Shown here: piece after piece, positions 15,215 to 44,291 of the stretch
Layout: each line of letters begins with the position of its first letter
How positions within the stretch are numbered: position 1 is the stretch's first letter
Source: Candidatus Bathyarchaeota archaeon
GTDB lineage: Archaea > Thermoproteota > Bathyarchaeia > Bathyarchaeales > SOJC01
Reading direction: 5' to 3'
Assembly (NCBI GenBank): GCA_020352645.1
Contig: CP070683.1
Coordinates: 758,188-804,901 of the forward strand
DNA length: 46,714 nt
The notes under the pieces: generated by a model
The model's input: only the letters and a program-made list of their open reading frames with translations
Told to the model about the DNA's origin: nothing
Databases searched by the model: none
Translations under genes and position numbers: made by a program

Positions 15215-17359
15215 TCATGCGCCCGAATTTGCAGAGCTCTGCAAGTTCCCCTGAATCACTTCTATGATCCTTGGAAAGTCTATTCCCAGCTGCTTCGCCT
15301 TTTGAAGTGTTGGTATTCCTTCTCTATTCCAACCTCTTCTCTTGTATACTGCGTCCATAAGCTTTTCATATTCAGCTTCACGGTGCTTTCTCAGAATGGC
15401 AATTTTCTCTTCAGTCGAATTGCTCTGGGGATTGCAGCCGATTTTTTCGAGTTGTCCATCATAGCGTTTCTCGCGGCTCTCGTATTCTTCCCTTGTTACT
15501 GGTCCTACTGCCCGGTACGGTATTGCATCATGTGCCCTCTTGCCAAAGCCCATTCTCAAATTGAAAATCCGTTGGAAGTTATATACCCTTTCGCTCATCA
15601 AAATGATTTCGTCAGCCGTAATCTTCCTTCCAGTAACTGCGTAGAAGAACTTGGCATAATTCTCGACGTGAGAGATTACCTTAGCGGGCTCTCTTGTGTT
15701 CTTATTGCCTTCAGGTACAACATCGTTCCAAGGAAGCTTGCACAGACCGTTCAACCCGAACCACGTGCGAAACATCGGAAACCAGTGAAGATTTTCAGCT
15801 TTCTGTTCAAAAGTTGGCATGAGGTTGTGAACCATGTCCAAAAATATCAGCCAAGCCTCATCATGCTGAGGTCCCTTTAGGGCAAGTCCATATCCGCCTT
15901 GCTGCGCAAGAGATTCCTTTGTCACATACTCGGAGAATTCTAGCCCCTTTGCCTCCATACCAATGTCTTCCAGGAATTCAACGTCAGCACCATGTTTCTC
16001 TACAAGTATTTTCTTCATTTTCTTCACACCTCGACCAATAACCGTTCCGAAACCTTCGCCTCTCGCCATCTGATGTAGAAGCTCCAAGACAGTTTCCTTC
16101 TCACCAAACCGCAAATCTAGACCGTCAGTAGCGCTTCTATCGATGACTCCGTTCTCATAGCATTCCATTGCAAGTGCTATTGAGGTGCCAACGGATATTG
16201 TGTCTAAACCATATAAGTCGCAATAGTAGTTTGCTTCGATAACATGGTCGGCATCAAATATGCCACAGTTGCTTCCAATCCCAGCGATTGTCTCGTACTC
16301 TGGTCCGTTAACAAAAACTCTTCTACCCTTGTAAGGTCCGGTCTTCAGCTCGAAATCCTTCACTCCATGTGCACAAGCTAGTGAACAGCCCAGCCAACAA
16401 CCGTCGAAGCCTTCATGGAATTTTCTCCTGTATATTTCACTCCCTAACTCCGAGGCTTCGGGGTGACTGCCGAAGCGGAAGTTGCGCACCGGCAGAAGAT
16501 CGAAATCATTCATTATCGTAACGAGGTGTGTTGTGCCGATTCTAGCCATTTCGTTTTGATTCGGATCTAGTTTTCTAATCTCTTGATTATAGGCTCTGCC
16601 GATTGCCTTGACCATATCTACGTCGGCCGGATTGTTGGATTCCACAGTGATTTGTCCTGAATACTTCACGATAATAGCCTTTATCTTTTTGTCACGAAGA
16701 ACCGTTCCCAAACCACCTCTGCCTGCTTGTTTAAATCTGTGTATTTTCCGTCCCGCGTCGTACCACGAAAAGTTCAGACAGCCGAAGTATGTGTGTTCAG
16801 CTCCCGGTCCGGAGGATACAACTGAGATGCTTTGGGGGTTTTCAGCTGCGAATCTGTCAGCAAGTATTTCAACAATGAATTCAGTCTCAGTTGGAAGCTC
16901 CGAGGCATCTTCGATTTGAACTTTGTTCTTGTCCCCATCTATGAAAACGAGAATTTCGGAGTGTGCTTTGCCTTGGATTTCAAGCGCGTCCCACCCGGCA
17001 AATTTCAAGTAAGAGCCAAAATACCCACCAACATTTGAGTCTAAGACAGAACCTGTCAAAGGAGACAAAGAAACTACAATGCTCTTTCCACTTCCTGGAA
17101 ATACTGGTGTACCACCTAGAGGTCCACAAGCAATGCAGAGTTCGTTCTCGGGATCATTCCATTTGATGATTCGATCGTGTGGGAGTGAATTCCACAGGAG
17201 CCATAGATCGAATCCTCGGCCACCTACAAATACGTCTCTCATTACTTGTGATACTTGCTTACCAGAGATTTCCATAGACGACAGGTTTACGTATAGCGTT
17301 CTGTTGTTGTAGCCTTGATCAATCCTCTTTGGCTCATATTCGAACGTAACGATTGCCAA
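15215..17359 (-). CDS. aldehyde:ferredoxin oxidoreductase family protein (AOR 1)
   Basis: Tungstopterin enzyme of the AOR family, 714 residues, about 100 longer than Pyrococcus AOR. N-terminal domain: YNNRTLYVNLSSMEISGKQV, FVGGRGFDLWLLW, ACGPLGGTPVFPGSGKSIVV, DSNVGGYFGSYLKFAGWDAL. Pterin-binding AGRGGLGTVLRDKKIKAIIV follows. The [4Fe-4S] ligands appear as C-x3-C-x3-C (about C319, C323, C327, in GCWLGCSLACAHG) with a distal Cys near residue 540 (NGLCKLPW). Pyrococcus AOR has C-x2-C-x3-C, so this is a different clade. A 50-residue C-terminal extension looks helical. Likely cytosolic, oxygen-sensitive, and coupled to ferredoxin; the aldehyde or other substrate is unknown. Confidence 0.94.
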   Translation of the reverse strand: MAIVTFEYEPKRIDQGYNNRTLYVNLSSMEISGKQVSQVMRDVFVGGRGFDLWLLWNSLPHDRIIKWNDPENELCIACGPLGGTPVFPGSGKSIVVSLSPLTGSVLDSNVGGYFGSYLKFAGWDALEIQGKAHSEILVFIDGDKNKVQIEDASELPTETEFIVEILADRFAAENPQSISVVSSGPGAEHTYFGCLNFSWYDAGRKIHRFKQAGRGGLGTVLRDKKIKAIIVKYSGQITVESNNPADVDMVKAIGRAYNQEIRKLDPNQNEMARIGTTHLVTIMNDFDLLPVRNFRFGSHPEASELGSEIYRRKFHEGFDGCWLGCSLACAHGVKDFELKTGPYKGRRVFVNGPEYETIAGIGSNCGIFDADHVIEANYYCDLYGLDTISVGTSIALAMECYENGVIDRSATDGLDLRFGEKETVLELLHQMARGEGFGTVIGRGVKKMKKILVEKHGADVEFLEDIGMEAKGLEFSEYVTKESLAQQGGYGLALKGPQHDEAWLIFLDMVHNLMPTFEQKAENLHWFPMFRTWFGLNGLCKLPWNDVVPEGNKNTREPAKVISHVENYAKFFYAVTGRKITADEIILMSERVYNFQRIFNLRMGFGKRAHDAIPYRAVGPVTREEYESREKRYDGQLEKIGCNPQSNSTEEKIAILRKHREAEYEKLMDAVYKRRGWNREGIPTLQKAKQLGIDFPRIIEVIQGNLQSSANSGA

Positions 17360-17533
17360 ATCCTACACCTCATAGCTACATTTAGAATGATCTGTAAAAC
17401 ATAAACTTACAGCCTATGGGCAGTTGATACGCCTTGTGACCAAGGAATCTTGTTTCAGCATGTGCGAATTGCAGAAGATGAGTTATAGGTGCACTTCTTC
17501 GAATACGCGTGCTTAACAGCGCGGAATGGCGGT

Positions 17534-17965
17534 CTACCCTTCTTTGGAGATGTGTGTTGAGATTTCGATTGCGTCCTCTATATTCCTTCTCAGTTCGCTC
17601 ATTCTAGGTGAAACGCCTCGGTAGTATTCAAAGGCGCCTCGATCTCTGGTTCGAAGTAGAATTAGGTTGGTGGGATAGAAATAGTGTCGGAAAACCTCTT
17701 TACTTTTCAGGGATTCTTCTTCGGAATCACGAGAGTATTTGACATGTATTTGCGTGAAAAGTGCCTTGTTCTTATGCTTGCTTTCTAAGTCCTCTGCCAG
17801 TTTTTCCATTTTTGGTTTCTGGTTTGCGCATGCTGGACATCCGTCGCGCGTGATGGCCATGACGTAGACCTTACCAATAGCGGGAGCTAAGTACTCAAGG
17901 TAAGACTTACCTGTCTTTTTGATGTTTTTCTCAAGTCTCGAAAACTCAATTTTCCCAATCGACAT
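17534..17965 (-). CDS. thioredoxin-fold protein with CPAC motif
   Basis: 143 residues with a thioredoxin fold: hydrophobic strand KVYVMAITRDG leading into CPACANQKPKMEKLAEDL (active-site C-P-A-C), a second strand LFTQIHVKY, and a later YPTNLILLRTRDRGAFEYYRG where the usual cis-Pro loop falls (YFYPTNLIL). No signal peptide is visible, so it probably acts in the cytosol as a disulfide reductase or redox partner. It lies between the two AOR genes on the same strand, with the zinc-ribbon gene 35 bases upstream; a role in maintaining AOR cysteines is possible but only inferred from position. Confidence 0.85.
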   Translation of the reverse strand: MSIGKIEFSRLEKNIKKTGKSYLEYLAPAIGKVYVMAITRDGCPACANQKPKMEKLAEDLESKHKNKALFTQIHVKYSRDSEEESLKSKEVFRHYFYPTNLILLRTRDRGAFEYYRGVSPRMSELRRNIEDAIEISTHISKEG

Positions 17966-18000
17966 CCTAGTTCCTCACATGCTTTCTATGATTGTTGTCA

Positions 18001-18165
18001 TCATTTGGCATAGATTCGATTTGGTTTTTCACATTTGGGGCATGATTTCATGGTTGTGTTTACCCAAGTCTTACAACTCGGGCATTCCTCCCGTAATAAA
18101 GTGCCACAGTTTACACAATAGAAGAAATCTCGAGCTTCCTTCCCGCATTTCGGACACTTGGTCAT
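18001..18165 (-). CDS. small double zinc-ribbon protein
   Basis: A 54-residue open frame from ATG at 18165 to TGA at 18001 that encodes eight cysteines in four CxxC pairs: CPKC, CVNC, CPSC, CPKC. The spacing fits a double zinc ribbon (DZR-like), with the basic end NRIYAK. Regular CxxC spacing with no frame break makes a real gene very likely despite its size. It sits directly upstream of the CPAC thioredoxin-fold gene (35-base gap) within the AOR cluster. It may be a metal-binding adaptor; no function is established. Confidence 0.8.
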   Translation of the reverse strand: MTKCPKCGKEARDFFYCVNCGTLLREECPSCKTWVNTTMKSCPKCEKPNRIYAK

Positions 18166-18348
18166 CAGAGTACACCACAAGCTAATGGCTTCAAGGGATT
18201 CTTAAGCTTTAATTCAAAAGGAAAGCGTGCTCACTCTCAGATAACACGGGAGAATGTGTCGTTTGCATGCAAATTTGCTTCACTCGTAGACTGGCGGTGT
18301 TAGGTGTTTCGTTGAACCTAGGTTTTCAGAAGTGAGTTGGGAGAGCTT

Positions 18349-20229
18349 CTAATCAGTTGCTTGGCGAATTTTGTCTAGAGCTTTGTCAACATCTTGCAGT
18401 CCCAGTTTTCTAAGGATTCTCGGTTTGGGGATTCCATTTTTGTCCCAGCCAGCGGCTTTGTAATATTTCCTCTTTGTTTTATCAACACGCGCCCTTCGAA
18501 GGACCTTTCCTTTGTAAGGACCTGATGGTAGGGGTTCGTAGAATCGCGCGGGGTTGTCATCATCCGTCTCAGGATTCCATTTTAGGTCCGGCCCACCCAA
18601 CAAGAGCATAGCTCTTTGCAGCTGAAGTATTCTCAAGGCCTTTGTGCTACACCATTCTTCTGGAGTTAATTCTACCCCTGTCGCCGCTTCGTAGAAATCA
18701 AATCTAATCTTACGTCGCAAACCGAAACTGTTGAAGTTGCAATACACTGCAGAGTCGTTGAAGATCTCCCACAGCTCGCTTCCAGGATCGTTTATCGGGA
18801 AGGCTGCAGTTGATGTATGATCCCCACCTTGCACCGAGCATGCATATGAAATTATGTCTGGATAGTCTTTGCCACTGCGGATTCCGTGTGCTCCGATGCT
18901 GATGCCTTTAGATTGCACAGCATATTCAAGAACCTCAACGTTCTTCATTCGTTCGATCTGTAGGGCTGCACGGTATGTTCCTTCTGCAAGCAGATCGCCA
19001 ATGCCTTCTCTGCGGGCGATTCTTTCGGCCAGTGCGGCAAAGGCTTCTGTGTTGCCCCACGCTAGCCTTAATCCTCCTAAATCTTCAGCACTCAGAATTC
19101 CCCTTTGGAAAAGCTCTGAAGCAAAACCAAGCACGTTCCCTGTTTGTATACCGCACAAGCCCAAGTCATCGATTAATGATGTGAGATACACATTGTCTTC
19201 TGGGGTGAATATTCCCAAGTTTGGTCCAAGGTAAGCTTGCAGTTCATAGTCTGGGTTGTCAGTTATCGCTCCTTTGAATTTCCCGGTTTTGACCATTGAA
19301 ATCTTGAGGCAACACGTGGGACAGCCAAAGTCACTCCATGATTGTTTAATCCACACTCTGTTTTCGAATTTGTCTACACCAAAACTTCTTCTGTTGTGCC
19401 ATTCATCTTGCCAGTTATGTACAGGTTCAGAGCTTGTTTTCGCGCCGACTTCGTATCCTGCTGCTCCTGTTCCCCACCGTCTCCAAAGTTCGCTGTCGTA
19501 GGCATTCTTGTATACTGCTTTGATTAGTCTTCTCATTCTCCGAAGGTTGGCAACTTCAGGGAGTGGGCCTGTGCCTTTAACGACAATTGCCTTCAGTTTC
19601 TTGGCGCCCATGAGCGCCCCGTAGCCGCCGTAGCCTGCTGCATGGGTCCACTTCGCTGCTACAACCGCTGTGCGTACTTTGTTTTCTCCTGCTGGGCCGA
19701 TGTATAGAACTGAAGGTTCCTTCATCTCACCGTACTTTGGAAATTTCTCTGTCAAGTGCCGCCGACATTCTTTTGTAAGAACTCTCAGCGTTTGTTTCGC
19801 ATCTTTTCCCCAAATGTGATCTGCGTCTACGATCTCGATGTTGGAGTCAATGACAAACAAATAGGATGGTTTTCTAGCTTCACCTGTGAAGATTATGCCG
19901 TCCCAACCAGCACATCTTAGCTCTACACCAAATTCTCCGCCAACTGTGGAGCCTACTACTCCATTACTCTGGGGAGATTTTCCTGATACACAAGTTCTTC
20001 CTCCGGGGAAATATCCAGTCAGTGGTCCGGTTAGAAATAGCAGCAGGTTTCTTGGATTCAAAGGGTTCAATGATTCCCACTTGGAACCGAGTCTGTCCCA
20101 CAGGATTTTTGAAGCCAGCCCTCTGCCACCAATATAGTCTCTCAAAACGTCGTCTTCAAGCACTGTCTCTCTGGTTCTTTCTTTTGATAGGTCGACTTCC
20201 AGGAATTTTCCTGCATAGCCACAGATCAA
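18349..20229 (-). CDS. aldehyde:ferredoxin oxidoreductase family protein (AOR 2)
   Basis: AOR-family tungstopterin enzyme, 626 residues. N-terminal domain: GYAGKFLEVDLSKERTRE, YIGGRGLASKILWD, FLTGPLTGYFPGGRTCVSGK, VGGEFGVELRCAGWDGIIF; pterin region AAGYGGYGALMGAKKLKAIVV. The distal cluster Cys is present (about C496, AVYCNFNSFG). The proximal motif is GCPTCCLKIS, i.e. Cys at relative positions 0, 3 and 4 near residue 302; the canonical C-x2-C-x3-C needs one at 7, where Ile stands. Either the neighbouring Cys substitutes or the cluster differs. Its start overlaps the stop of the ferredoxin gene by 4 bases, pointing to a two-subunit enzyme. Confidence 0.94.
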   Translation of the reverse strand: MICGYAGKFLEVDLSKERTRETVLEDDVLRDYIGGRGLASKILWDRLGSKWESLNPLNPRNLLLFLTGPLTGYFPGGRTCVSGKSPQSNGVVGSTVGGEFGVELRCAGWDGIIFTGEARKPSYLFVIDSNIEIVDADHIWGKDAKQTLRVLTKECRRHLTEKFPKYGEMKEPSVLYIGPAGENKVRTAVVAAKWTHAAGYGGYGALMGAKKLKAIVVKGTGPLPEVANLRRMRRLIKAVYKNAYDSELWRRWGTGAAGYEVGAKTSSEPVHNWQDEWHNRRSFGVDKFENRVWIKQSWSDFGCPTCCLKISMVKTGKFKGAITDNPDYELQAYLGPNLGIFTPEDNVYLTSLIDDLGLCGIQTGNVLGFASELFQRGILSAEDLGGLRLAWGNTEAFAALAERIARREGIGDLLAEGTYRAALQIERMKNVEVLEYAVQSKGISIGAHGIRSGKDYPDIISYACSVQGGDHTSTAAFPINDPGSELWEIFNDSAVYCNFNSFGLRRKIRFDFYEAATGVELTPEEWCSTKALRILQLQRAMLLLGGPDLKWNPETDDDNPARFYEPLPSGPYKGKVLRRARVDKTKRKYYKAAGWDKNGIPKPRILRKLGLQDVDKALDKIRQATD

Positions 20230-20798
20230 AGAAACTGCTCTCCCATTTCACCATACAATTTGGTTACCAAGTCATGTGTTATGTCTTCAGGAGTGCGGGC
20301 ATATAGATTGTAGGCGCGGTTTCTGCGTGAAACTTCTGTAAGCACATTCCATCCTCCCTCACTGCAAACTTGCACGCATCTTGGTTTGCCTTTGCACAGA
20401 TCACAGATCAGAACTCGCTTTTCGGTTGGATGCAAATGAGGTACTCTGCCCGGACATGCCTCTATGCATTTGCCACATGCGGTGCACTTTCTTGCCTTGA
20501 CTAGAACTGCACCTGTTCTCTCACTGATTGACAAGGCTTTAACCGGACACGCATCTACACAAGGGTAGTCCTCGCATTGGGCGCAGAAATGAGGAAAGTC
20601 AGCACCTGGAACAAGCATGAAAATTCTTATTCTTGATGCCTCTGGCCATACCTGCTTTTCATGGAAGAGCGAACACGCCACTTCGCATTGTCTGCATCCA
20701 CTGCACTTAGACAGATCTCTTGCTATCCAGATTGCTTGCTTCTCAACCACGTAGGAACCTCCAAGGTAATTCAGAGATTTCTTAAATGATGCTTCCAT
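20226..20798 (-). CDS. four-cluster ferredoxin, electron-transfer subunit of AOR 2
   Basis: 190 residues with sixteen cysteines in four groups: CSGCRQCEVAC, CAQCEDYPCVDAC, CTACGKCIEAC and CDLCKGKPRCVQVC, the pattern of HycB/DmsB-like subunits carrying four [4Fe-4S] clusters. It is the first gene of the minus-strand AOR run and overlaps AOR 2 by 4 bases, so it is the probable dedicated electron carrier. The true start may be a few residues downstream of the first Met. No Tat signal, so cytosolic. Confidence 0.95.
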   Translation of the reverse strand: MEASFKKSLNYLGGSYVVEKQAIWIARDLSKCSGCRQCEVACSLFHEKQVWPEASRIRIFMLVPGADFPHFCAQCEDYPCVDACPVKALSISERTGAVLVKARKCTACGKCIEACPGRVPHLHPTEKRVLICDLCKGKPRCVQVCSEGGWNVLTEVSRRNRAYNLYARTPEDITHDLVTKLYGEMGEQFL

Positions 20799-24787: not shown

Positions 24788-24848
24788 AAGCGGGTAACTG
24801 CTTAGCTTGAGATGGAAAGCTGAAAGTGGCCCAAAAGGAGAAGGAAAA

Positions 24849-27800
24849 TTGAGAAGAATCGAGGAGAAATATCTATCTTTACTGGTGAAACTAGCAGTTT
24901 TTCTTTTATGCACAGCAGCCACAATGAGAACCCTAAACACCTGCGTCTCTTTAGACGCAGCCCGACATGGACCTAGGGAGGATGACCTTGTCATTAGATA
25001 CTATCCAGATTCGCAGACTGCTTACATGGCCTTGAAGAACGATGAGATTGACTTACTCGATTGGGATGTGACAATCAAACCTCCATCACCGCCGGACCCG
25101 TCACCAAATGGCGTTGAAGATTTCATCTGGGTGACAAACTCAATTTCGCCAGATGGGCTAGCAAACTGGGGATTACCCGGTCACACAACTGTTCCAGTAG
25201 ACGCCGGCGCGTACAACGGCTATGGATTGCCTAATTGGACTGGAAACTTCACTGTAGACCACCCACTTGCCTCAGTGAACAGCATAACCGTGCATGCGTT
25301 GCCCTTCACGCCAGACAGTTACACGTATGCGCTTACTGAAGGGGTGGACTTCGTTGTTCACGCTGACGATGATCTGATTGAACTGCTGAACCCGCTGGAC
25401 GTACAGATAATCAATGAGCACTGGAAAGAGGGTGTCAACAACACCCTAAATGGGTGGCCTTGGATTAGATACGTTGCCTCATGCATTCAGAGTGTTTACG
25501 TTGATTTTAACAACGGTACTGCAAGATGGGCTACCAACAACGGCTTTGAGGTTCCTCCACCAAGTGAATGGTGGTATGAGCCTGACTGGCCTGGCGAACT
25601 TGAAGGATGGTGGGCACTAGGCTACTTTGCTGGACCATGGGCGTGGCCCGCAGGTTCCGAATGGTGGGTAAATTACACCGCGGCTTCTCACATCTCTGTT
25701 GATTACAATGCAGAACCAATACTGACTTGGCCAGCAGACTTTTTCACCGATGCTGTAGAAGATCCTTGCCTTGTGTTAGATGCTGTCGCTGACTTCGGCT
25801 TCTATGAGATCGATTTGAACAACAACTACACCATAGGAAGCTACCCTGGCGTTAGGTCACCAATGAACTATACTGAGATGAGGCAGGCAATTGCCTGGTT
25901 AACTGACAAAGAGTATGTGGTGAGCGAGATTTGCGGTGGGTTTGCGGAGAGAATTGACCAGATGATTGCAGCCCCCCTGAAAGGTTGGGCAGACGAAACG
26001 AACTGGTACCCAAATTACCCCTATGAGTATAACCCGCCAGCTGCTGCAGTCTTGTTGAATAGTAAATTCCCACAGGGGGCAACGATAAACCCTTACTACG
26101 ACTCAGCCTTCCCAGGTTCAGCTGAATACATTAGAACCTATCCTCTTGATCACCCACAGAAAGCTGAACAGAATCTTGATCCACTAATTGTTGTCGTTAG
26201 GGATGATGATCAACGAAGATTGCAGACTGGCCGATTAATCTATAGTAACATGAGGAAACATGGCATACCATGCATTGTAATTGAAGGCAGTGCGCCGGCT
26301 GTATATGACCGAGTGATGGGTGACTTTGACTACCACTTCTACACAGGTGGATGGAAGGTTGGAAGATTCCCAGCCGTAACTCTCTACGGTCTATACCACA
26401 GCGACTTCACATATCCACACGGACAAAACTACGTTACAGGCAATCTAACGCATCCAACTCTAGACGCTCTCTTGGAGGCTGGCAACTACGCTCTAACGTA
26501 TCTTGATGCTATCACTGCCACAAAAAGTGCAGGTGGATGGATGACGGAATACTGTGTGAACGTCCCACTTTGGAGCAACGCTGGATACTATGCTTGGCGC
26601 AGCAGCTTGCTAGGCGTAGTGAACATGGAAGGCAGTGGCCCGATTAATGACTACACTTTTCTCAACGCCTACAAAATCGACGGTTCACCAATACGAGTAG
26701 GACTTACGGACGCCCCACATTCCATGAATATTGTCTACTCTAGCTGGCAGGTGGATTACCGGTGCCTAGACAGAATGAATCTATATGGAGGTCAGGAAGT
26801 AGCTCCATATGACTTAGCAGCTGATCAAAATGGCTTCGTTAAGTATCACGAAATCACCACGTGGAGTGATCCTGATGATGGTGGCGCAATCAAATCAAAG
26901 ATCGTTGAGACTTACAGAACCAACGGATATTATTGTGAGCCTGTAACAGGCAACCAGAAAGCAGTTGTAAACGCTTACGACTACATGTGGAACGCATGGT
27001 ACGACTACCAGCTAAACTACGCGTGGTTTAGCTCAAGCTTTTTCGATTTACACCACATCAACGTCCTCAACAGCACCACACTTGAGATCTACTTCGATAC
27101 TCTCAGCTACTGGAACAACTACGACTGCCAAGGCCCACTCAGACCACGCAACATATGGTTTGCTGAGCCATCACTGGTTGGTAGCGCTATCGAAACCTTC
27201 ACTGAAGGTCCTGGAAACGACTTCGAAGCGCCCGACATCGTTCCACTAGCCAACGAACCAATCTTCATCGATTGGGTTGAGGTAAACGATGTGCCTCTAA
27301 CTCCAAACATAGATTACAACATCTACGCTCGAGGTGGAGGACCAAACGCCTACCTAGAGATTCTTACAAGCATAGCTGACGGCAGCACCGTGGATGTGAG
27401 TTACAGGTATCCTATGGACCCGCGAGGCTACACGCCAGGCAACGTGGCATGGCAGACAATCCTTGAAGGCGGCGGCATGTACTACGCAACCAGCTTCACC
27501 CCAGGCGTGGGCGGCAGCATAACGCTGAAGAAGAACCCATTCTACTACCAGGAAACCCCACCGCTCGGTGAAATCGACTTCATCAGAAAGCCAAGTGGGG
27601 AATACGAAGTTGACATATTCGACATTATAGATGTTGCTGGAGCTTTCGGTAGTCAGGGAAAAGGCATACCAGATGCTAATTGGTTGGCAGGAGCTGATCT
27701 CTTTCCGCCTGGAGGAATCATTGATGATTTCGATGTTGCAGTTGTTCATGTTGCGATGGGCACACCAATGGAGAATCATGACGTTGCAGTACTGGCCTTG

Positions 27801-28916
27801 GAACCTTCGCAGACGGAGGTTACTGTTGGAGATCTGGTCCTGGTAAACGTGACTTTAGAAAACCAAGGTGACTACACTGAAACCTTCGAGGTCACCCTTC
27901 GACTATCATGTTCAGGCACTGAAGTAGACAGTCAGAATGTGACATTGGCAAGTATGGAGACTACAACAATCACTATGGTTTGGAACACGACAGGCTTTGA
28001 AGGATATCACACTATATCCGCCTACGCTGGGCCCGTTTATTACGGAGACAGCTTTCCAGAGCACAACTTATGGGACAACTTCCTCTTCGGAGACTTGATT
28101 CATGTAAAACCAGTCTTCCACACTGTTGTTGTTGAGACAGCGGGTCAGAAATACAACATGACAGTGGAAAGCGACGGCATCCTCACGCACATCGTAGCTA
28201 CGAAGAACTCACTCCATCTTGACGTGTCTGGACCACCAGGCCAAACAGCTTATGTCAACGCCACCATCCCAACTGGCCTCAACACCACAAGTATCAAGGT
28301 ATTCGTCGACAACGTCAAGCTGGAATATCCGCCATTCCCCATCATCACAAGTAACGGAACACACTACTTCGTCTACTTTGAAACGACCCTCAGTATACAT
28401 GGCGTGACTTTCAAATACGCGCTTCCTGATGTTGTAGTAGCTAACATTTCATCTTCAAGGGAGATTGTGGGTCAAGGATACATAGTTGTCATGAACGTCA
28501 CGGTCCAAAACTTGGCCACTGAAAGCAGAATGTGCAACGTGTCAATGTTTGCGGATTGTCATCAAATCTTTCTTGGAGACGAAATTATCGTTGGAATCCA
28601 AAACCTGACTATAGCTGGCGAAAGCAACACAACTGTCACTTTCGTGTGGAACACAACTGGTGTGGATAAAGGGTTCTGGGCTCTCTGCGCAGTGGTTGAC
28701 GATGCACAAGTACATGGCCCGATACTGGTTACGTTAGCCGGTGATGTTGACGGAGACCGAGATGTTGACATCTTCGATATTGTTAGAATGGCAGGAGTTT
28801 ATGGTGTTGCCAAGCCGGATCCGGATTACGATCCTATCATAGACCTCGATGGCGACGGAGATATCGACATATTTGACCTAGTTCGAGCTGCAGGAAACTA
28901 CGGAGAAAGCTGGTAG
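24849..28916 (+). CDS. secreted ABC-type (SBP_bac_5-like) solute-binding protein with two dockerin-like and two CARDB-like modules
   Basis: A very large surface protein, about 1355 residues from a TTG at 24849 (AAGGAGAAGG upstream); TTG 24807 is also in frame. A signal segment (YLSLLVKLAVFLLCTAATM) is followed by a family-5 solute-binding region: DSQTAYMALKNDEIDLLDWD, MRQAIAWLTDKEYVVSEICG and VMGDFDYHFYTGGWK. After it come a dockerin-like module (about 915-970; YEVDIFDIIDVAGAFGSQG), a CARDB-like domain, a beta-rich spacer, a second CARDB-like domain (VVVANISSSREIVGQGYIVV) and a terminal dockerin with two calcium loops (DVDGDRDVDIFDIVRMAG, DLDGDGDIDIFDLVRAAG). Family-5 proteins bind peptides, nickel or sugars; no permease or ATPase gene is nearby. 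Many NxT/S sites fit an exported glycoprotein. Confidence 0.93.
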   Translation: MRRIEEKYLSLLVKLAVFLLCTAATMRTLNTCVSLDAARHGPREDDLVIRYYPDSQTAYMALKNDEIDLLDWDVTIKPPSPPDPSPNGVEDFIWVTNSISPDGLANWGLPGHTTVPVDAGAYNGYGLPNWTGNFTVDHPLASVNSITVHALPFTPDSYTYALTEGVDFVVHADDDLIELLNPLDVQIINEHWKEGVNNTLNGWPWIRYVASCIQSVYVDFNNGTARWATNNGFEVPPPSEWWYEPDWPGELEGWWALGYFAGPWAWPAGSEWWVNYTAASHISVDYNAEPILTWPADFFTDAVEDPCLVLDAVADFGFYEIDLNNNYTIGSYPGVRSPMNYTEMRQAIAWLTDKEYVVSEICGGFAERIDQMIAAPLKGWADETNWYPNYPYEYNPPAAAVLLNSKFPQGATINPYYDSAFPGSAEYIRTYPLDHPQKAEQNLDPLIVVVRDDDQRRLQTGRLIYSNMRKHGIPCIVIEGSAPAVYDRVMGDFDYHFYTGGWKVGRFPAVTLYGLYHSDFTYPHGQNYVTGNLTHPTLDALLEAGNYALTYLDAITATKSAGGWMTEYCVNVPLWSNAGYYAWRSSLLGVVNMEGSGPINDYTFLNAYKIDGSPIRVGLTDAPHSMNIVYSSWQVDYRCLDRMNLYGGQEVAPYDLAADQNGFVKYHEITTWSDPDDGGAIKSKIVETYRTNGYYCEPVTGNQKAVVNAYDYMWNAWYDYQLNYAWFSSSFFDLHHINVLNSTTLEIYFDTLSYWNNYDCQGPLRPRNIWFAEPSLVGSAIETFTEGPGNDFEAPDIVPLANEPIFIDWVEVNDVPLTPNIDYNIYARGGGPNAYLEILTSIADGSTVDVSYRYPMDPRGYTPGNVAWQTILEGGGMYYATSFTPGVGGSITLKKNPFYYQETPPLGEIDFIRKPSGEYEVDIFDIIDVAGAFGSQGKGIPDANWLAGADLFPPGGIIDDFDVAVVHVAMGTPMENHDVAVLALEPSQTEVTVGDLVLVNVTLENQGDYTETFEVTLRLSCSGTEVDSQNVTLASMETTTITMVWNTTGFEGYHTISAYAGPVYYGDSFPEHNLWDNFLFGDLIHVKPVFHTVVVETAGQKYNMTVESDGILTHIVATKNSLHLDVSGPPGQTAYVNATIPTGLNTTSIKVFVDNVKLEYPPFPIITSNGTHYFVYFETTLSIHGVTFKYALPDVVVANISSSREIVGQGYIVVMNVTVQNLATESRMCNVSMFADCHQIFLGDEIIVGIQNLTIAGESNTTVTFVWNTTGVDKGFWALCAVVDDAQVHGPILVTLAGDVDGDRDVDIFDIVRMAGVYGVAKPDPDYDPIIDLDGDGDIDIFDLVRAAGNYGESW

Positions 28917-41752: not shown

Positions 41753-42652
41753 TTACCAGCTTTTACCGTAGTTGGATGCTGCTGCCACTATGTCGAAAAT
41801 ATCAATGTCTCCATCGTCATCTACGTCAGAGTTCGAGTCGTATTTCGGGTGTGGTTTTGAAACTCCGTAAGCTCCTGCCATACGCACAATGTCGAATATG
41901 TCGATATCCCGATCGCCATCAACGTCACCAGCTAAAGTAATCAGCACTACACCATCAACGAAGGAGTTATCGGAGGTTTCAGTCTCACCTGGAACCACAT
42001 CTGCATTGGCATTCAGAGAGTAATTTCCCTTTGAAAAAAGCGTTGTGTTCCAATCGAAGGTTAGAGTATGATTCTCTCCAGGATTGAGTATTACCGAGGT
42101 TTTGAAGATTTCTGTTGTGTTGGCTTTGACTGTTATGTTGAAGTTTTCTATGAAGCCGCCTTGGTTTTCAACCGTCACATTCATTGACACTTTGAATCCT
42201 TGACCAACTGTTGCCTTTGGCAGGCAGCCAGACTTTGAGTGACCCAGACTGGTGACTGCAACATCATGAAGATCTGACGTGACGTTAATGAAGCCAGTTA
42301 TCCAGAGCATGTCAAAGCTGTAGTATTGAAGCTCCACCGAATCGGTGAATGTATGTGACCAAGTTGTGCCGGGAGGTATCGGATCAGAGAGAAGATATGT
42401 AGATCCATTAGCTGTGAAAACGAACCACAGCGTGTGAATGACAGAGTCAGTGTTATTCCACCGAATGGTGTCGCCAGGATTGATTGTGAGATTTTGCGGA
42501 AGAAACGCTAGATTAGAAATCTCCACCTCGTGAGTGACTTGAGCACTGACCCGCTGAACCACATGTGTCGTAAAGAAAAGAGTTGCCACTGAGGCAACCA
42601 ATATGGTAGCCACTGTGAAGCGTCTTTTGAAACAGGATGCTGTTCTGTTCAT
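41753..42652 (-). CDS. secreted cupredoxin-like protein with CARDB and dockerin
   Basis: 299 residues from ATG 42652. Signal peptide (RRFTVATILVASVATLFF), then a cupredoxin-like domain: VEISNLAFLPQNLTINPGDT, IRWNNTDSVIHTLWF, then LQYYSFDMLWITGFINV. Plastocyanin relatives have YYC-x2-H-x2-M in the last loop; here Cys, His and Met are Ser, Met and Ile, leaving only the first His, so type-1 copper binding is unlikely. A CARDB-like domain (FKVSMNVTVENQGGFIENFN) and two dockerin loops follow (DVDGDRDIDIFDIVRMAG, DVDDDGDIDIFDIVAAAS). The dockerin nearly copies that of the large solute-binding protein. It follows the two-cohesin gene by 40 bases and is probably co-expressed with it. Confidence 0.88.
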   Translation of the reverse strand: MNRTASCFKRRFTVATILVASVATLFFTTHVVQRVSAQVTHEVEISNLAFLPQNLTINPGDTIRWNNTDSVIHTLWFVFTANGSTYLLSDPIPPGTTWSHTFTDSVELQYYSFDMLWITGFINVTSDLHDVAVTSLGHSKSGCLPKATVGQGFKVSMNVTVENQGGFIENFNITVKANTTEIFKTSVILNPGENHTLTFDWNTTLFSKGNYSLNANADVVPGETETSDNSFVDGVVLITLAGDVDGDRDIDIFDIVRMAGAYGVSKPHPKYDSNSDVDDDGDIDIFDIVAAASNYGKSW

Positions 42653-42692: not shown

Positions 42693-44291
42693 CTATGGAT
42701 CGTAGGGGAAGTAACTTGACCACCAATACCAATGTCTCCAGTAAACCCAGTGCCACCACCAACCCCACCAAGGTCGCCAGAATGGTACAACTGTGTACGG
42801 GTAATAGTAGGCCTTAACATAGCAACGCCACCACCAATAGGGTCCCCAGAACCAATTCGGATGGTTGTGACTATCATGCCACCAGTAGTAGAAGTGAACA
42901 ACTCTTCCTACAGGAGTCCAAGCCCACCAGTAGAAGTCTATGAAGAAGTATGGTTCCGCGTTGTATATGATGAAGGGATCTACCTCTGGAATCTGATCAG
43001 GCGGTAGAAGGTTTGTGACGAAGCCCATCGCCATGCTTGAGCCATCGCTCATTTCAGCCGAAAGCAGGCAGGCACGCGTGCCATCTTCCAGCATGTTGCT
43101 GGACCACCATGAGGCTACTGTTCCATTGAACGGTTCTGATCCCGGTTCGAAGTAGATGTCAAAGAATGAATCGACCTGGTATAAGCCTCCGCCGACGTGT
43201 TCGTCAAACACGAATCCTTTTGCTTCAAGCTCAGCCTTCACTTCAGCATAGCCCTCTGCCGAGCCTGGTGGTACAAACGGTATATCTGTCAGGTAGTATG
43301 GATATGGCAGCTCCACCAGATGTTGAAGCTTAAGCGGTTCCCAATACTCTACTTGAAGAACCCTGCCGTCAGCTCCCACGTAAGGTATAAGCCATCCTTG
43401 TGAGGTGTATAAGTTCAGCGAGCTAATGGTTAAGATGCTTTCTCCGCCTCCAGTGCAGTGGAATGTTGCTTTTGCAATGGACCCGCTGCCAGTTGATCCG
43501 CCTGGAGAGGTTGTTGAAACATCGAATTCTATGGTGCCCAGTGAATCGTCAATTAACTTGTAGTCCACTGATACAGGAGGCAGGATGAAGCCGCCGGGTA
43601 CAATGTCGATTGCATCAACGAAGGTAGTGTCGTAGTTCAGTATTAGCTGGAAGCTGGCTAGGTCATATCCTATTGGGATGTCAACCATCACGTCGACAGG
43701 AAATGGTGTGCAGACGGGTACGGTGTAGTCAGCGGGGTCAATCCAAGCAGTTGCTGGTGGTATGGTCTGATACACAGCTGCGTTGTTTGTGTCGATGGCT
43801 GGAACGTGCTCTATTGAAGAGGCGTCTGAGAGAAATATCTCCTCAAGAAAAATTGTGCTTTGGCCTGGGTTGTCACAGTGGAATTCAACATGTGCTAGAG
43901 GAACATCGGTGCTTGTTGTGCTGCCGCCATCTAATGTTTCCGCCCAGCAGTATACTGCGTCGGTGCCTAAACCATAGTAATCGGGCAAGTGTACCCAATT
44001 GAAACTAACAGGTGATTGAAGGAAGCCTCCGTCCCAAGCGCTTACAGGCGTCATTTGGGAAGCGTCGAAGCTCAGATAGAATGCGTAATCGTAGATTGCG
44101 GGAGTCGAGACCCACATCATCCAAACGGTGATGATGAAGTTGTTGCATGGCGCCACGTTTGTTGTGTCTGGTCTGAGGTCAACGATTGCATCTGTCTGTG
44201 CTTGAGCAGGCTGCAGAGTCACAAAGAGTGCTGTTATGACGCAGATGATTAGTGATACACTAATGAGCAATTTCCTATTCACCACTCTCAT
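42693..44291 (-). CDS. secreted protein with two cohesin-like domains and an aromatic-rich C-terminal tail
   Basis: 532 residues from ATG 44291; GTG 44285 has better spacing to GGAGG. Signal peptide (KLLISVSLIICVITALFV), then two cohesin-like domains, about 35-180 (IYDYAFYLSFDASQMTPVSA) and 185-325 (ASFQLILNYDTTFVDAIDIV, SGSIAKATFHCTGGGESILT). A mixed domain (about 330-450) follows. The last 80 residues hold 21 Trp, 13 Tyr, 5 Phe and 6 His, e.g. RVVHFYYWWHDSHNHPNWFW and RPWWGWWWHWVYWRHWYWW. No membrane span or PEFP anchor is seen, so retention at the surface may depend on that tail. The cupredoxin-dockerin gene lies 40 bases downstream. Confidence 0.88.
   Translation of the reverse strand: MRVVNRKLLISVSLIICVITALFVTLQPAQAQTDAIVDLRPDTTNVAPCNNFIITVWMMWVSTPAIYDYAFYLSFDASQMTPVSAWDGGFLQSPVSFNWVHLPDYYGLGTDAVYCWAETLDGGSTTSTDVPLAHVEFHCDNPGQSTIFLEEIFLSDASSIEHVPAIDTNNAAVYQTIPPATAWIDPADYTVPVCTPFPVDVMVDIPIGYDLASFQLILNYDTTFVDAIDIVPGGFILPPVSVDYKLIDDSLGTIEFDVSTTSPGGSTGSGSIAKATFHCTGGGESILTISSLNLYTSQGWLIPYVGADGRVLQVEYWEPLKLQHLVELPYPYYLTDIPFVPPGSAEGYAEVKAELEAKGFVFDEHVGGGLYQVDSFFDIYFEPGSEPFNGTVASWWSSNMLEDGTRACLLSAEMSDGSSMAMGFVTNLLPPDQIPEVDPFIIYNAEPYFFIDFYWWAWTPVGRVVHFYYWWHDSHNHPNWFWGPYWWWRCYVKAYYYPYTVVPFWRPWWGWWWHWVYWRHWYWWSSYFPYDP

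What the first reader, a model, noticed from the sequence alone, without database searches (positions are those of the whole stretch)
42693..42932. Extreme Trp/Tyr/His-rich 80-residue tail on a cohesin-like protein
Of the last 80 residues 39 are Trp, Tyr or Phe (21 Trp) and 6 are His, with runs such as WWGWWWHWVYWRHWYWW. This is far beyond normal composition, is in frame with a well-formed secreted protein, and is not low-complexity at the DNA level. Closely packed aromatics at the cell surface could bind carbohydrate or lipid, glue the protein into the envelope, or form an aromatic chain for electron hopping. None is established.
Basis: partly seen in the sequence, partly recalled or inferred. 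Interest (0 to 1): 0.75.

Follow-up and report, generated by a model that had tools for sequence, protein, structure and literature searches.

The report
Conserved tryptophan-rich archaeal surface domain
Seven species of uncultured Bathyarchaeia share a secreted protein ending in an 85-residue domain that is about a quarter tryptophan; it is strongly conserved, matches no known family, and is always encoded next to a protein carrying a plastocyanin-like domain that has lost its copper site, so the two probably work together at the cell surface.

Summary
In detail: of the last 80 residues 39 are W/Y/F (21 W) and 6 are H. The tail is a real, functional domain. Homologues in six other Bathyarchaeia genomes (7 of 163 in the order) all carry it, with 17 of 21 Trp invariant, a fixed [DN]SH[SN]HPNW[FY]WG motif and strong purifying selection (pN about 0.13-0.27, pS about 0.44-0.88). 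The framing needs correcting. The cohesins are accessories, absent from four of the seven. The conserved unit is a 215-residue C-terminal domain (an alpha/beta part plus the aromatic tail) with no match in Pfam, NCBIfam, PHROGs, PADLOC or the PDB. The gene directly downstream always encodes a cupredoxin-fold domain that lacks the type-1 copper site, in a variant found in exactly the same seven genomes of 257 in the class. That domain sits in changing contexts: CARDB-dockerin, dockerin, PKD-CARDB-transmembrane, or inserted in an OppA-like solute-binding protein. Best reading: a two-protein surface module whose aromatic domain binds its partner plus an apolar ligand or the membrane surface. Electron hopping is disfavoured, as the copper site is gone. 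The tail's structure is not predictable from seven sequences; its function stays inferred.

The parts
42693..44291 (-). Gene A: secreted protein (532 aa from ATG 44291; GTG 44330 would give 545 aa): signal peptide, two cohesin-like domains, C-terminal aromatic domain
   Evidence: ORF and translation; homologues in six further genomes
43402..43790 (-). Second cohesin-like domain of gene A (approximate limits)
   Evidence: PF00963 29.1 bits, cut-off 24.1; genome-level match at C1:801621-801848, i.e. window about 43434-43661
42693..43337 (-). 215-residue conserved C-terminal domain (EPLKLQHLVE...FPYDP): the unit shared by all seven homologues
   Evidence: alignment A3; profile search E 1e-76 to 1e-123 in seven genomes
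42975..43337 (-). Upstream alpha/beta subdomain of the conserved domain (EPLKLQ...NLLPPDQIPEVDP)
   Evidence: predicted helix plus four-stranded sheet, block pLDDT about 53-82 in one of two AF2 models; not found apart from the tail in 257 genomes
42693..42953 (-). Trp/Tyr/His-rich tail subdomain (PYFFIDFYWW...FPYDP); invariant SH.HPNW.WG motif
   Evidence: 17 of 21 Trp invariant, 20 of 21 always W/Y/F/H, purifying selection
41753..42652 (-). Gene B, partner: signal peptide, cupredoxin fold without a complete Cu site, CARDB, dockerin-like end; starts 40 bp after gene A
   Evidence: Pfam Copper-bind and CARDB over cut-off, dockerin below cut-off, dockerin at genome level just under cut-off; adjacent in all seven genomes
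42276..42542 (-). Cupredoxin-like domain of gene B with degenerate type-1 copper site (first His kept, Cys to Ser, second His and Met lost)
   Evidence: profile found at E<1e-42 only in the same seven genomes

Best explanation
Gene A and gene B encode a two-protein cell-surface module of Bathyarchaeia. SHOWN: the core of A is a 215-residue domain ending in the aromatic tail; it is conserved at the residue level and under purifying selection, and always encoded directly upstream of B. The core of B is a cupredoxin-fold domain that no longer has a type-1 copper site and occurs only where A occurs. INFERRED: the two cores bind each other outside the cell. The densely packed Trp/Tyr/His residues make an aromatic, largely non-redox binding surface that holds the complex to an apolar partner: the outer face of the membrane or S-layer, or an aromatic or glycan ligand handed to a solute-binding protein. 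Which of these is not settled. The exchangeable add-ons (cohesins on A in three species; dockerin, transmembrane helix or a whole OppA-like solute-binding protein on B) plug this module into the cohesin-dockerin surface assembly that these archaea use for many proteins.
For: Tail present and positionally conserved in 7 genomes from 3 families of one order; pN well below pS in the tail and tail better conserved than the rest. Gene order A-B with 24-48 bp gaps in 7/7. The B cupredoxin variant has E<1e-42 in exactly these 7 of 257 class genomes, next best 2e-13. Copper ligands: first His kept in 5/7, Cys in 2/7, second His 0/7, Met 0/7, while two of its Trp residues (TLW, LW.TG) are invariant. 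Architectures of B vary around the constant cupredoxin. The own genome holds 7 cohesin matches in 4 open frames and 14 dockerin matches. In ANME archaea dockerins are common on OppA-type solute-binding proteins, and archaeal cohesin-dockerin binding is cited there as verified (PMC9012536). Interfacial partition sum -42 to -48 kcal/mol per 84 residues in all members.
Against: Physical interaction of A and B is inferred from co-occurrence and adjacency only. AlphaFold2 does not resolve the tail: the two models disagree and pLDDT is about 20-55 there. Foldseek finds no relative. Residue-level conservation (SH.HPNW, single Trp positions) is stricter than generic membrane partition needs, favouring a specific site over plain anchoring. 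In G137 A lacks cohesins while B still has a dockerin-like end, so an A-cohesin/B-dockerin bond cannot be the general link.
Confidence: 0.5

Rival explanations
1. Pure membrane or envelope anchor: the tail is an interfacial 'aromatic belt' that glues the secreted protein to the lipid surface, replacing a transmembrane or sorting-signal anchor.
For: Very favourable interfacial free energy, no strongly hydrophobic segment (max Kyte-Doolittle 19-mer <= 0.64) and net charge 0 to +3 in all members; C-terminal position; no C-terminal TM or sorting motif seen by eye.
Against: Individual positions, including His, Asn, Pro and Asp/Asn, are nearly frozen, which an unspecific anchor does not need; anchors are usually reused on many proteins, but this one is single copy and tied to one partner; at least one partner carries its own TM helix (L011).
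Confidence: 0.2
2. Ligand-binding domain: stacked Trp/Tyr residues and conserved His form a binding surface for glycans, peptides or plant-derived aromatic compounds, delivered to solute-binding proteins of ABC importers.
For: In G137 the partner cupredoxin lies inside an OppA-like SBP_bac_5 protein; the window also encodes a 1369-aa SBP_bac_5-CARDB protein with a dockerin-like end at 24807-28916; strict residue conservation.
Against: Only one of seven partners is an SBP; no carbohydrate-binding family match; no conserved transporter genes next to the pair.
Confidence: 0.2
3. Electron-conducting aromatic chain: closely packed Trp/Tyr hop electrons across the envelope, with the cupredoxin as redox partner.
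For: Aromatic density is extreme; a conductive protein filament has been reported in an archaeon (Methanospirillum archaellum, PMC6469973, title and abstract seen); the partner has a cupredoxin fold.
Against: The Cu site is not intact in any of seven partners; no heme protein or other redox protein is conserved beside the pair; no filament-type N-terminus seen.
Confidence: 0.05
4. Secreted antimicrobial (bacteriocin-like) precursor: the alpha/beta part is a propeptide, the Trp-rich tail the active peptide, and the cupredoxin protein the immunity factor.
For: Precursor-like two-part layout; known antimicrobial peptides can be Trp-rich; two-gene unit with patchy distribution (7 of 163 genomes).
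Against: No NCBIfam, PHROGs or PADLOC match; tail slowly evolving rather than diversifying; leader never found with another core; cohesins on the same chain in three species.
Confidence: 0.05

Closest known systems
Archaeal non-cellulosomal cohesin-dockerin surface systems (Archaeoglobus, ANME; PMC9012536)
   Same: Secreted cohesin and dockerin proteins, dockerins on OppA-like solute-binding proteins, many dockerin and few cohesin genes in one genome
   Different: I found none described with a Trp-rich C-terminal domain or a Cu-less cupredoxin partner; cohesins are optional here
Type-1 blue copper proteins (plastocyanin/amicyanin; Cu nitrite reductase C-terminal domain 9cck)
   Same: Partner domain B has the cupredoxin fold by sequence profile (E 5e-11 to 9cck, 3e-6 to amicyanin)
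   Different: Second His and Met ligands absent in all seven, Cys in five; invariant Trp residues instead
Trp-rich interfacial peptides and membrane proteins
   Same: High Trp/Tyr content favouring the lipid-water interface; Trp averages about 1.7% in membrane proteins (PMC11742613)
   Different: 25-29% Trp over 84 residues in a secreted, single-copy, position-conserved domain without a hydrophobic helix

Membership tests
Cohesin (PF00963) | Profile match above the gathering score | tested here: met
   29.1 bits vs 24.1 for residues 224-297 of the window protein; 41.4 bits in L010. The homologue L009 gave no Pfam cohesin hit, and L011, L032, L033 and G137 have no cohesin region
Cohesin (PF00963) | Binds a dockerin | not testable with these tools
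   needs binding assays
Dockerin (PF00404), gene B | Profile match above gathering score, two Ca-binding repeats | tested here: inconclusive
   17.5 bits vs 22.9 in protein scan, 20.5 bits at genome level; two Asp-rich Ca-loop-like repeats visible in the sequence
Type-1 copper cupredoxin, gene B | Cupredoxin fold | tested here: met
   Copper-bind 22.8 bits over 21.2; PDB profile matches to amicyanin, plastocyanin and nitrite reductase
Type-1 copper cupredoxin, gene B | His-Cys-His(-Met) copper ligands | tested here: not met
   No member of seven has the full set; second His 0/7, Cys 2/7
Known Trp-rich or carbohydrate-binding domain families | Match of the 215-aa domain to any curated family | tested here: not met
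   Pfam and NCBIfam none meaningful at E<=1, PHROGs and PADLOC none at E<=0.1, PDB sequences none at E<=1
Bacteriocin-like precursor (considered) | Match to a bacteriocin precursor model in NCBIfam | tested here: not met
   no relevant hit in NCBIfam
Aromatic electron-conducting protein (considered) | Redox-active partner or cofactor | tested here: not met
   partner lacks an intact copper site; nothing redox in the conserved unit

The most novel reading that the evidence does not exclude
A previously undescribed protein domain built on an almost purely aromatic core (W/Y/F/H about half of the residues) with a specific architecture, forming an obligate extracellular complex with a cupredoxin that traded its copper site for aromatic contacts: a new kind of receptor or adhesion domain.
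Probability: 0.35. Interest if true: 0.8.

Novelty: new variant of a known kind. Interest (0 to 1): 0.6.

Why it matters
It defines a conserved domain with an extreme Trp content, outside all the curated families searched, in an abundant and barely cultured archaeal class. It comes with a ready-made hypothesis for its partner: a copper-less cupredoxin found only beside it. Solving it would show how a secreted domain can fold with a quarter Trp, and what Bathyarchaeia bind at their surface.

Tried and rejected
Viral contigs: no relative. Plasmids and phages: none. Wider phylum: only the same order. AF2 on two alignments left the tail unresolved and the two models disagree on it; Foldseek hits had E of about 1 or worse and are meaningless. 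Conservation periodicity in the tail segments gave no clear helix or strand signal. Weak leader-subdomain matches at E 0.007-0.1 look like chance matches to one helix; the idea of a modular leader with exchangeable cores was dropped. Reading-frame artefact rejected: the same frame and C-terminal end in seven genomes, pN far below pS. An A-cohesin/B-dockerin bond as the general link was weakened by G137 (cohesin-less A, dockerin-bearing B). Literature searches found no description of the domain. The named record CP070759 was not available in the annotated collections.

Full report
OBSERVATION. The minus-strand ORF 44330/44291-42693 ends with the reported tail; counts of 21 W, 13 Y, 5 F and 6 H in the last 80 residues are exact. 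Against the composition of the window's other genes this has probability about 1e-20; the next richest 80-residue stretch has 12 W. No tandem DNA repeat underlies it.

CONSERVATION. The window lies in a 1.68-Mb single-contig genome. Among 61 relatives, 163 genomes of the order, 257 of the class and 398 drawn from the phylum, relatives of the C-terminal domain occur in seven genomes of one order, in three families and six genera. Named records among them are Candidatus Bathyarchaeota A05DMB-4, 8_1_Jan_SF_Bin96 and bin28. All carry the tail, ending within two residues of the same place. Alignment A3 shows 17 of the 21 Trp invariant (count) and an invariant SH.HPNW.WG core. Codon analysis gives pN 0.13-0.27 against pS 0.44-0.88 in the tail, and the tail is more conserved than the upstream part.

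ANATOMY. Three members have cohesin-like domains before the conserved domain (window, L009, L010); four are short, with signal sequence plus domain only (L011, L032, L033, and G137, whose gene is split over two contig ends, L035/L031). The conserved unit is thus the 215-residue domain: an alpha/beta part (one AF2 model gives helices and four strands at block pLDDT 53-82) plus the aromatic tail (unresolved). It matches no family in Pfam or NCBIfam, PHROGs, PADLOC or PDB sequences; Foldseek finds nothing.

PARTNER. In all seven genomes the next gene downstream, 24-48 bp away on the same strand, contains a cupredoxin-fold domain. Its profile (A4) finds these seven at E<1e-42 and nothing else in 257 class genomes better than 2e-13. 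Its closest solved relatives are blue copper domains, but the second His and the Met are absent in all seven and the Cys in five, so an ordinary type-1 copper site is excluded; Trp residues at TLW and LW.TG are invariant instead. Around this constant domain the rest of B changes: CARDB and a dockerin-like end (window, L010), dockerin-like end (L009), PKD-CARDB-transmembrane (L011), or inserted in an 878-residue SBP_bac_5 (OppA-like) protein with a dockerin-like end (L037). The L032 and L033 partners are cut by a contig end and by masked bases, so their C-termini are unknown.

SETTING. The own genome encodes 7 cohesin matches in four open frames and 14 dockerin matches, and the window itself holds a 1369-aa SBP_bac_5-CARDB protein with a dockerin-like end whose sequence closely resembles that of gene B. 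In ANME archaea dockerins are common on OppA-type solute-binding proteins, and archaeal cohesin-dockerin binding is cited there as verified (PMC9012536).

MECHANISM. The consistent reading is a two-protein surface module: the aromatic domain of A and the copper-less cupredoxin of B form the core, and exchangeable parts connect it to the surface assembly. That A and B bind is inferred from exclusive co-occurrence and adjacency. What the aromatic surface contacts besides B is open: the lipid surface (interfacial sum -42 to -48 kcal/mol) or an apolar or glycan ligand (strict residue conservation, link to an SBP in G137). Electron hopping has no redox partner to support it.

LIMITS. Seven sequences are too few for a reliable fold. 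All genomes but the window's are drafts or anonymous records. Signal peptides were judged by eye.

Noticed in passing
L010:1121-1510 and 1501-2724 (G006): The gene A homologue is split into two overlapping ORFs in different frames within its first cohesin, by a frameshift (assembly error or real); the Trp-rich domain is intact.
   Followed up: no
L037:444-3080: A cupredoxin domain without a copper site is inserted inside an OppA-like solute-binding protein with a C-terminal dockerin-like end; an unusual domain insertion.
   Followed up: partly
window 24807-28916: 1369-aa SBP_bac_5-CARDB protein whose C-terminal dockerin-like end closely resembles that of gene B, suggesting both use the same cohesin.
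   Followed up: partly
window 15215-20798: Two genes that look by eye like aldehyde:ferredoxin oxidoreductase-like proteins, with a Cys-rich ferredoxin-like gene beside them; other redox genes of the window, unrelated to the finding.
   Followed up: no
tree (A3 domain): The domain tree splits the genomes of family f6: G017 groups with f1 and f7 members, the other f6 members form a second clade; patchy distribution suggests horizontal transfer or repeated loss.
   Followed up: partly
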